Notes under the pieces: model-generated
The model's database searches: none
What the model saw: the letters and a program-made list of their open reading frames with translations, nothing else
Told to the model about the DNA's origin: nothing
Program-made: the position numbers and the translations under genes
Source: Nitrospiraceae bacterium
GTDB taxonomy: Bacteria; Nitrospirota; Thermodesulfovibrionia; Thermodesulfovibrionales; UBA1546
Length of the DNA stretch: 5,120 nt
Direction of reading: 5' to 3'
Assembly: GCA_003535475.1 (NCBI GenBank)
Contig: DOHC01000080.1
Coordinates: 1-5,120, forward strand
Shown here: positions 3,866 through 5,120 of the stretch, one piece after another
Numbering within the stretch: the first letter of the stretch is position 1
Layout of the letters: each line of letters opens with the position of its first letter

Positions 3866-5120
3866 ATGGGCTTGTGGGGAGATATAAGGCAAGATTTTAA
3901 GGCTGTTTTCGAGAAAGACCCTGCAGCAAAAAACAGCCTTGAGGTGATGTTCGCCTATCCGGGTTTCCACGCAATACTCCTTCACAGGATAAACCATATG
4001 CTCTGGACCCTCCGCATCCCTGTAATCCCGCGATTCCTCTCACACATAGTAAGGCTTTTTACAGGCATTGAGATACATCCTGCGGCAAAGATAGGCCCAG
4101 GCCTTTTCATTGACCACGGCATGGGTGTTGTGATTGGAGAGACAACAGAAATCGGGGAAAATGTTCTTCTGTATCAGGGGGTGACATTAGGCGGAACCGG
4201 AAAAGAAAAAGGCAAAAGGCATCCCACGCTTGGCAATAACGTTACCGTCGGCGCAGGCGCAAAAATACTCGGTGCGATAAAGATAGGAGACAACTCGATA
4301 ATAGGGGCAAACTCCGTGATACTTAAAAATGTGCCTGATAATTCCATCTCCGTCGGAGTGCCCGGAAGGGTGACAAGAAAGAAAGTTATAAGGATGACTA
4401 CAGAAGAAGGGCTTGTTGAGTTTTATGACTATTTCCCAGACCCTCTTTCAGAAAAACTGAAGGAACTGGAATCACACGTTGATGCCCTTACAAAGAAGAT
4501 GGATGCAATAGAGAAGGCTCAGAAGACAGGAGGAAAGATGAAGGTCTATAACACTCTCACAGCGGAAAAAGAAGACTTTATCCCTCTGAATAAAGACAGG
4601 GTGAATATGTATGTATGCGGCGTCACTGTTTATGACAGCTGCCATATTGGACACGCAAGAAGCGCAATAGTGTTTGATGTTATCCAGAGATACCTCAGGC
4701 ACAGGGGTTTTAATGTGACATTCGTAAGGAATTTCACTGATATTGACGACAAGATAATCAACAGGGCAAATAAAGAGGGAATTCCGTGGAATGAGGTTGC
4801 AAGGAAATACACTGAAGAATTCTACAGCGACATGGACAGCCTCGGGGTTGCGCGCGCTGACATAGAGCCCAAGGCTACAGAGCATATTAAAGAGATGATA
4901 GAGATTGTAAAGGGGCTTATAGATAAAGGATATGCCTACGAGAGGGACGGAAGCGTCTATTTTGAGGTAAATAAATTTCCTGAATACGGGAAGCTGTCAA
5001 AGAGAGACAAGGAAGATATGATGGCAGGCGCAAGGGTTGAGGTGGATGAAAGAAAAAAAGATCCTATGGACTTTGCGCTCTGGAAGGCATCAAAAGAAGG
5101 CGAGCCTTTCTGGGAAAGCC
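3866..5120 (+). CDS. cysE-cysS: Serine O-acetyltransferase / cysteinyl-tRNA synthetase in-frame fusion (3' end outside window)
   Basis: I translated every codon from 3866 to 5119 and found no stop. Residues 1-224 are a complete short-type (B. subtilis-like) serine acetyltransferase, which makes O-acetylserine from serine and acetyl-CoA. The N-terminal helices start MGLWGDIRQDFKAVFEKDPA, and the left-handed beta-helix hexapeptides follow. IEIHPAAKIG (68-77) has Glu69 where E. coli has Asp143, FIDHG has His84 (E. coli His158), GGTGKEKGKRHP has His119 (E. coli His193), and VGVPGRV ends the core. A coiled-coil-like tail (about 192-219) and a short linker, QKTGGK, follow. Residues 225-418 are the start of CysS, which charges tRNA-Cys: zinc ligand Cys in MYVCGVTVYD, HIGH at CysS positions 36-39, FTDIDDKI at 66-73, and DPMDFALWK. 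The second zinc-site Cys and KMSKS lie beyond the window. The ATG at 3866 is forced by an in-frame TAA nine bases upstream. Separate adjacent cysE and cysS genes are known, as in the Bacillus gltX-cysE-cysS operon. A base error or recent frameshift near 4512-4538 remains possible. Confidence 0.85.
   Translation, partial: MGLWGDIRQDFKAVFEKDPAAKNSLEVMFAYPGFHAILLHRINHMLWTLRIPVIPRFLSHIVRLFTGIEIHPAAKIGPGLFIDHGMGVVIGETTEIGENVLLYQGVTLGGTGKEKGKRHPTLGNNVTVGAGAKILGAIKIGDNSIIGANSVILKNVPDNSISVGVPGRVTRKKVIRMTTEEGLVEFYDYFPDPLSEKLKELESHVDALTKKMDAIEKAQKTGGKMKVYNTLTAEKEDFIPLNKDRVNMYVCGVTVYDSCHIGHARSAIVFDVIQRYLRHRGFNVTFVRNFTDIDDKIINRANKEGIPWNEVARKYTEEFYSDMDSLGVARADIEPKATEHIKEMIEIVKGLIDKGYAYERDGSVYFEVNKFPEYGKLSKRDKEDMMAGARVEVDERKKDPMDFALWKASKEGEPFWES
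4528..4533 (+). promoter_or_regulatory. Internal Shine-Dalgarno before the CysS methionine
   Basis: AGGAGG lies 4 nt before the ATG at 4538, inside the continuous cysE-cysS frame. It is as strong as the sites of the chrB cluster, while the true start of this frame has none. It suggests that CysS is also, or mainly, initiated here. Confidence 0.7.
4538..5120 (+). CDS. cysS: Cysteinyl-tRNA synthetase, alternative internal start (3' end outside window)
   Basis: This is the same frame as the fusion, listed separately because a stand-alone CysS could begin here. The methionine opens MKVYNTLTAEKEDF, which is where family members normally start (short basic MxxYNT opening). 194 residues are visible, covering the first half of the Rossmann catalytic domain: zinc-binding Cys27, HIGH 36-39 for ATP binding, and the TDIDDKI segment. 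The sequence stops soon after DFALWKASKEGEPFWES, before the remaining zinc ligands, KMSKS and the anticodon-binding domain. It acts in the cytoplasm, joining cysteine to tRNA-Cys. Whether it is made free, as a fusion, or both cannot be decided from DNA alone. Confidence 0.8.
   Translation, partial: MKVYNTLTAEKEDFIPLNKDRVNMYVCGVTVYDSCHIGHARSAIVFDVIQRYLRHRGFNVTFVRNFTDIDDKIINRANKEGIPWNEVARKYTEEFYSDMDSLGVARADIEPKATEHIKEMIEIVKGLIDKGYAYERDGSVYFEVNKFPEYGKLSKRDKEDMMAGARVEVDERKKDPMDFALWKASKEGEPFWES

What the first reader, a model, noticed from the sequence alone, without database searches (positions are those of the whole stretch)
3866..5120. CysE and CysS encoded as one uninterrupted reading frame
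Codon-by-codon reading shows no stop between a full serine acetyltransferase and cysteinyl-tRNA synthetase. Both ATGs are in the same phase (3866 and 4538 differ by 672 = 224 codons). Both parts keep their catalytic residues and the joint is a helical tail plus a short flexible linker, so it looks like a workable two-domain protein. CysE normally forms trimers or hexamers, so a fusion would gather several CysRS units around a cysteine-producing core. It would also bury the free CysE C-terminus that, in E. coli-type enzymes, docks into cysteine synthase (CysK). This links cysteine supply with tRNA charging. I am not certain whether such fusions have been described.
Basis: partly seen in the sequence, partly recalled or inferred. 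Interest (0 to 1): 0.75.

Follow-up and report, generated by a model that had tools for sequence, protein, structure and literature searches.

The report
CysE–CysRS fusion with internal start
In a class of Nitrospirota bacteria the genes for CysE (predicted to start cysteine synthesis) and CysRS (predicted to load cysteine onto tRNA) form one unbroken reading frame, and in the window's lineage a conserved ribosome-binding site hidden in the joint is predicted to let the same gene also make CysRS alone.

Summary
From ATG 3866 one frame runs through a short CysE and a helical linker into CysRS; contig and window both end at 5120. It is no assembly error: fused ORFs were fetched from 170 genomes, 95 genera and 20 of the 21 families of the class. 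In 215 genomes of other classes of the phylum no match scored like a fusion. In eight families (92 loci) the CysRS start is always ATG or GTG, and the wobble base of the first linker Gly is A in 82 of 86, the most conserved of 146 four-fold sites (next 70%, median 43%). In family f21 the start codon is gone (0 of 35), the wobble base drifts, and the fusion is the only CysRS found. I infer fusion plus free CysRS in the window's lineage and obligate fusion in f21. TATAAT 5–14 nt before the CysE start (103 of 165 loci), with GGAGG in none, suggests a leaderless fusion mRNA. CysK-docking loss and hexamers are not supported. Nothing was tested at the bench; eight open-access searches showed no description.

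The parts
3866..5120 (+). CysE-CysRS fusion reading frame (first 418 codons; cut by the contig end; 708 aa in the near relative L005)
3852..3857 (+). TATAAT, predicted -10 box 8 nt before the CysE start; predicted leaderless or near-leaderless mRNA
   Evidence: TATAAT 5-14 nt before the start in 103 of 165 fused loci against a mean of 3.0 in shuffles. Not found by the -35/-10 scan
3866..4381 (+). Serine acetyltransferase (CysE) domain, residues 1-172: short N-terminal helices and left-handed beta helix
   Evidence: Pfam SATase_N (end part) and Hexapep, PDB alignments of the relative L005, model of L005
4442..4522 (+). Linker helix, residues 193-219, with 3-4-3-4 hydrophobic spacing; predicted coiled coil
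   Evidence: model of L005; spacing read by eye; 28 or 31 residues between PDP and the CysRS start in 92 and 45 of 168 loci
4528..4533 (+). AGGAGG, Shine-Dalgarno sequence inside the linker codons (ACA GGA GGA)
   Evidence: wobble base 4531 (Gly 222) is the most conserved four-fold site of 146 in the SD families
4538..4540 (+). Internal ATG, predicted second start (free CysRS)
   Evidence: ATG 86 and GTG 6 of 92 loci in the SD families; ATG, GTG or TTG in 0 of 35 in f21
4538..5120 (+). Cysteinyl-tRNA synthetase domain (N-terminal 194 residues; HIGH motif at 4643-4654, first zinc ligand Cys251 at 4616-4618)
   Evidence: Pfam tRNA-synt_1e 8e-73, alignment of L005 to 1li5

Best explanation
One reading frame joins a serine acetyltransferase (CysE) to cysteinyl-tRNA synthetase (CysRS) through a predicted helical linker, and a conserved ribosome-binding site within that linker likely lets the same mRNA also give free CysRS. 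Shown by sequence: the frame, its spread over one class of Nitrospirota, the intact catalytic motifs, and conservation of the linker bases beyond what the protein needs. Inferred: transcription starts at or a few bases before ATG 3866, so the full-length protein is made from a leaderless or near-leaderless message, while ribosomes also bind AGGAGG 4528-4533 and start at ATG 4538. Inferred: the CysE part forms a trimer whose C-terminal helices make a coiled coil carrying three CysRS units, with the second product adding free CysRS, so one promoter sets cysteine synthesis and cysteine charging together while the two starts set their ratio. In family f21 the second start was lost and the fusion is probably the sole, working CysRS.
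For: Frame open in the window, spanning both halves in 45 of 61 genomes and in 176 loci from 170 genomes, 95 genera, 20 families. Zinc ligands, HIGH and KMSKS of CysRS and the CysE active-site His are invariant in 89 aligned fusions. Internal start: GGAGG with a 4-nt gap in 80 of 92 loci of eight families, 7 of 92 without GGAGG; start codon ATG or GTG in 92 of 92; Val at that place in any family is always GTG (7 of 7). Gly(-3) wobble is A in 82 of 86, top of 146 four-fold columns, next 70%, median 43%; in f21 the homologous Gly has 8 A of 32 and 145 of 173 columns are as conserved. Own codon usage predicts 21.9 GGA of 85 where 82 are seen; the neighbouring Gly(-5) has 22 of 50. On the tree Gly(-3) needs 2 changes against 19 for Gly(-5) in the same 45 rows. 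The junction has the strongest SD before any in-frame Met in 87 of 92 genes. Free cysS genes of unfused relatives start at the same place, with GGAGG in 7 of 7 f9 loci. In f21, 35 of 37 genomes have exactly one match at E <= 1e-40, the fusion, and 2 have none. Leaderless start: TATAAT in 103 of 165 against a shuffle mean of 3.0, GGAGG in 0 of 165.
Against: No expression data of any kind. The eight 'SD families' were grouped after seeing the motif. Families f2, f5, f8, f16, f17 and f18 keep ATG in most loci but GGAGG in none, so a second product is doubtful there; f3 mostly has TTG with weak SD. Taken alone, the window's linker is not unusual: 23% of synonymous draws give as strong an SD. The independent-pairs test for SD and start codon together gave no signal (13 pairs, start codon differs in 0.4 on average). 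f21 still has an SD-like duplex energy of -7.3 despite having no start codon. TATAAT close to ATG is about twice as common as the control in this genome (287 against 134), so the leaderless arrangement is not special to this gene; no locus of f6, f7, f14, f15, f16, f19 or f20 has it, and 7 of 165 loci have a 4-base SD before the CysE start. The trimer and its coiled coil were not modelled.
Confidence: 0.76

Rival explanations
1. Fusion only: the linker Shine-Dalgarno and ATG are relics of an ancestral cysE-cysS operon and give no second protein; the cell uses the joined protein for both jobs.
For: f21 shows that a fusion with no internal start can be the only CysRS found. Separate neighbouring cysE and cysS, often overlapping by 4 or 13 nt, are common in other phyla (69 of 80 named loci), so a relic is easy to imagine.
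Against: Other synonymous sites of the gene are close to random across the same species (median major base 43%) while Gly(-3) stays A in 82 of 86; a relic would have drifted as it did in f21.
Confidence: 0.12
2. Translational pause: the SD-like stretch in the linker slows elongating ribosomes so that CysE folds before CysRS is made; it does not start translation.
For: It sits exactly between two domains and would also be selected at the nucleotide level.
Against: A pause needs no start codon, yet 92 of 92 SD-family loci keep ATG or GTG, and Val there is always GTG; spacing to the start is 4 nt in 80 of 92. Unfused relatives use the same site as a start.
Confidence: 0.06
3. Two separate proteins only: the long frame is chance absence of a stop, and the fusion is cleaved or not made.
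For: Other bacteria make CysE and CysRS from separate genes; one genome (G171, L148) has an in-frame TGA 9 nt before the CysRS start.
Against: The frame is stop-free in 176 loci across 20 families with linker length almost fixed; f21 has no usual start codon at which CysRS could begin.
Confidence: 0.04

Closest known systems
cysE-cysS operon of Bacillota (gltX-(T-box)-cysE-cysS)
   Same: Same two genes in the same order under one control; 69 of 80 named loci show them as separate neighbours, many overlapping. Operon with T-box seen in one passage each of PMC4342826 and PMC7927825; cysES with T-box mentioned in a passage of PMC2940859.
   Different: Separate proteins there; here one frame. No Rfam family reached its threshold in the window, so no T-box was found.
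Bacterial genes with an internal in-frame start (ClpB, InfB and other N-terminal proteoform pairs; passages of PMC11005335)
   Same: One frame, two products sharing the C-terminal part, as predicted here.
   Different: There the short form is a shortened version of one protein; here it would release a complete second enzyme. No initiation data here.
Free-standing CysRS (1li5, 1u0b, 8qhp)
   Same: Catalytic and zinc residues, full-length alignment.
   Different: Carries CysE at its N-terminus. 8qhp is titled a homodimer.
Serine acetyltransferase (Haemophilus influenzae 1s80/1ssq, Neisseria gonorrhoeae 6wye)
   Same: Beta-helix fold and active-site His.
   Different: No N-terminal helical domain, no free C-terminus, Glu69 where 1ssq has Asp at 139.

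Membership tests
Serine acetyltransferase (CysE) | Left-handed beta helix of hexapeptide repeats and SATase fold | tested here: met
   Hexapep 6.8e-14 and SATase_N 6.9e-05 for the window protein; 6wye 6.4e-44 for L005
Serine acetyltransferase (CysE) | Catalytic His and its acidic partner (roles recalled: His154 and Asp139 in 1ssq) | tested here: met
   His84 aligns with 154 of 1ssq without gaps and is invariant in 89 fusions; the partner place holds Glu69, a conservative change kept in at least 90%
E. coli-type hexameric SAT | N-terminal helical domain (about 80 residues) | tested here: not met
   Alignments to bacterial SAT begin at chain residue 80-107; SATase_N matches only at profile 73-103 of 105
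CysK-docking SAT (cysteine synthase complex) | Free C-terminus ending in Ile | tested here: not met
   Joined to CysRS; of 17 free CysE of relatives examined, 1 ends in Ile
Class I CysRS | HIGH and KMSKS motifs and zinc ligands Cys, Cys, His, Glu (ligand roles recalled) | tested here: met
   Cys251, Cys431, His456, Glu460, H260-x-G-H263 and K488-S492 align to 1li5 and are invariant in 89 fusions; in the window itself only the part up to residue 418 can be seen
Gene with internal in-frame translation start | Conserved SD and start codon inside the frame under nucleotide-level selection | tested here: met
   for eight families including the window's; not met in f21 and unclear in the rest
Gene with internal in-frame translation start | Short product detected | not testable with these tools
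   needs proteomics or ribosome profiling
Leaderless mRNA | Transcription start at or next to the start codon | tested here: inconclusive
   TATAAT 5-14 nt upstream in 103 of 165, GGAGG in none; no transcript data

The most novel reading that the evidence does not exclude
One gene keeps two pools of CysRS: a pool tethered on the CysE trimer, started without a leader, and a free pool started at a ribosome-binding site written into the linker codons. The tethered CysRS draws down cysteine next to feedback-inhibited CysE, so cysteine supply follows tRNA charging; in f21 the free pool was abandoned and the tethered enzyme became the only CysRS.
Probability: 0.3. Interest if true: 0.82.

Novelty: new variant of a known kind. 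Interest (0 to 1): 0.64.

Why it matters
It joins an amino acid's biosynthetic entry enzyme to the synthetase that uses that amino acid, and it is present in 20 of the 21 families of one bacterial class; I saw it nowhere else, though the protein search listed only its best 120 hits. The class also holds a natural experiment: lineages with the second start, lineages without it, and lineages that lack the CysE part. It shows how an operon could fuse without giving up separate expression of the downstream gene, and it warns that annotation often names such proteins by one half only.

Tried and rejected
Assembly or frameshift artefact: rejected by 176 loci. A riboswitch or T-box before the gene: no Rfam match at the gathering threshold in the window. 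CysK-docking tail lost by fusion: not supported, since 1 of 17 free CysE of relatives ends in Ile. CysK absent: rejected, cysKM over the cut-off in 39 of 41 genomes including the window's own. Loss of the fused CysE always compensated by another CysE: only partly true. Of 34 genomes taken as unfused (from search rows and best E; part of them fetched), 10 have a long-type CysE, 4 a separate short cysE, and 20 none at E <= 1e-25; 1 of 46 fused genomes has the long type. Phylogenetic pair test of SD with start codon: no signal. Single-sequence synonymous test: not significant for the window alone. A 728-aa CysRS frame of another class (L278) was looked at for a second kind of fusion: its extra N-terminal stretch did not match CysE and the ATG/GTG/TTG frame is 595 aa; rejected. 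The first junction script used a motif filter and failed on 12 of 167 loci; BLAST showed 9 of these fused. Rows dropped before the counts: 8 of 176 loci (L033 and L301, apparent repeats of counted contigs; L306 with L321, L308 with L318, L309 with L315, pairs of loci from the same broken contigs); one search dropped only L033 and L301. One search used 169 fused, 29 unfused and 14 outgroup rows and left out fragments.

Full report
Observation. The window's frame from ATG 3866 is open to the contig end; the contig is exactly 5120 bases. ATG 4538 is codon 225 of that frame. The sequence around it reads ACA GGA GGA AAG ATG, that is T G G K M in protein and AGGAGG-AAAG-ATG in RNA.

Spread. A search of the own genome plus 60 relatives found the two halves joined in one stop-free frame in 45 of 61 genomes. 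In the own class (230 genomes searched) 212 gave a match at E <= 1e-40, fused or not. I fetched loci and tested open frames: 176 loci hold both halves in one frame, from 170 genomes, 95 genera and 20 families by the tool's codes; the class search shows 21 families, and only f9 gave no fused locus. In the phylum search (379 genomes of at least 90% completeness, plus the own), the 215 genomes of other classes had best E-values no better than 2.7e-90, while spanning matches there start at 4.4e-162; their match rows were beyond the listed part. In 14 of these examined further, the CysE and CysS matches lie at different places and no frame holds both. The best 120 of 8000 scored database proteins all cover the whole fusion at 705-732 aa; the other 7880 were not seen, so a fusion outside this phylum is not excluded. 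Source names there include 'Nitrospirae bacterium', 'Candidatus Sulfobium mesophilum' and 'cysteinyl-tRNA synthetase/serine O-acetyltransferase'. NCBI places that species in Nitrospirota, class Nitrospiria. That the tool's class is Thermodesulfovibrionia in GTDB is my recollection, not a result.

Within the class the fusion is absent from f9, most of f10, two genera of f2 and some single genomes. A CysRS tree needs 12 changes between fused and unfused. Because families of the class outside the window's order are fused and other classes are not, one early gain with later losses is the simplest reading; the tree was a fast one and its outgroup was not one clade, so this is inference. In f10 and G009 a TAWAAT hexamer lies 24-39 nt before the free cysS start in 10 of 12 loci, and in several of them the surrounding AATTGTTGTATAAT matches the stretch before fused f10 genes. 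This looks as if the CysE part had been deleted between promoter and linker.

Enzyme integrity. CysRS: Cys251, Cys431, His456, Glu460, the HIGH motif and KMSKS align to E. coli CysRS 1li5 and are invariant in 89 fusions. CysE: His84 aligns with residue 154 of 1ssq; residue 139 is Glu69 here. The roles of these residues are recalled. Most of the N-terminal helical domain of E. coli-type SAT is absent. The AlphaFold monomer of L005 (mean pLDDT 86.5, 89 sequences) shows both folds, a helix at 193-219 of lower confidence and flexible stretches on both sides; a loop at 483-495 of CysRS is also of low confidence. Foldseek matches CysRS and SAT structures. No solved chain was seen that spans both halves among the best 60 of 122 listed. 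Hydrophobic residues in the helix recur with 3-4-3-4 spacing, read by eye; a trimeric coiled coil is inferred.

Internal start. I listed the codons before the CysRS start for all fused loci. In f1, f4, f6, f7, f10, f11, f12 and f13 the start is ATG (86) or GTG (6) in 92 of 92 loci, with GGAGG 4 nt before it in 80, further off in 5 and missing in 7. The grouping was made after seeing the motif. Within these families the third base of Gly(-3) is A in 82 of 86, the highest of 146 four-fold columns; the second highest (70%) is the other Gly of the motif and the median is 43%. Expected GGA from the genes' own usage is 21.9 of 85 against 82 seen, while Gly(-5) of the same linkers is GGA in 22 of 50. 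On the tree Gly(-3) needs 2 changes and Gly(-5) 19 in the same 45 rows. In f21 none of 35 loci has ATG, GTG or TTG, none has GGAGG, and the homologous Gly is GGA in 8 of 32, close to the 24% usage. Thirty-five of 37 f21 genomes have one match at E <= 1e-40, the fusion, and 2 have none. The free CysRS of the 14 other-class genomes examined that scored weakest had 2.0e-62, so a second ordinary CysRS would have been seen; in f21 the joined protein is therefore probably the working CysRS. Against: f2, f5, f8 and f16-f18 keep ATG in most loci but GGAGG in none; f3 mostly has TTG; the pair test gave no signal; the window alone is not unusual (23% of synonymous draws as strong).

First start. TATAAT lies 5-14 nt before the CysE start in 103 of 165 loci (shuffles: mean 3.0, maximum 8); GGAGG lies there in none and a 4-base SD in 7. 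In free cysS of f10 what looks like the same box sits at a normal promoter distance. I infer a leaderless or near-leaderless fusion mRNA. In the own genome TATAAT-N5-13-ATG is about twice its control (287 against 134), so this may be a habit of the organism.

Function. CysK is present (39 of 41 genomes over the cut-off), so the steps from serine through O-acetylserine and cysteine to Cys-tRNA are all encoded. O-acetylserine is not a CysRS substrate, so direct channelling between the two halves is unlikely (established pathway knowledge). Co-control of dose and a link between CysE feedback by cysteine and cysteine use are inference.

Known work. Eight searches of the open-access library were run: on this gene pair or class, on synthetase fusions and on internal starts in fused genes. 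One search listed 20 of 119 papers and one search listed 15 of 26. No listed title or abstract start describes a CysE-CysRS fusion. I read passages only, of PMC2940859, PMC7927825, PMC4342826 and PMC11005335. Subscription papers were not searched.

Noticed in passing
L313, L314, L319, L323, L324, L325: Second, free CysRS-like proteins (open frames of 415-429 aa, one 542) with about 30% identity to the CysRS half in several genomes of the class; MshC is among the PDB relatives of CysRS, so they may be MshC-like.
   Followed up: no
G009:C5 and G036:C42: A long-type CysE (open frame about 330 aa) lies next to cysK in two genomes that lack the fusion.
   Followed up: partly
L148 (G171): In-frame TGA 9 nt before the CysRS start in one genome whose examined genus-mates are fused: a natural split, or an assembly fault.
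   Followed up: partly
L150 and L175 (G183): One genome carries two different fused copies; L175 has the same junction and upstream bases as L176 of another genome (f21), so contamination or transfer.
   Followed up: no
window 32-3784: Neighbours: ChrB C-terminal domain protein, a small protein without Pfam match (730-1014), HD-domain protein, MFS transporter, HEAT-repeat protein on the minus strand, Zincin_1 metallopeptidase.
   Followed up: no
genus g14 and several f10 and f2 genomes: 20 of 34 genomes taken as unfused show no CysE at E <= 1e-25, so their cysteine route is unclear.
   Followed up: no
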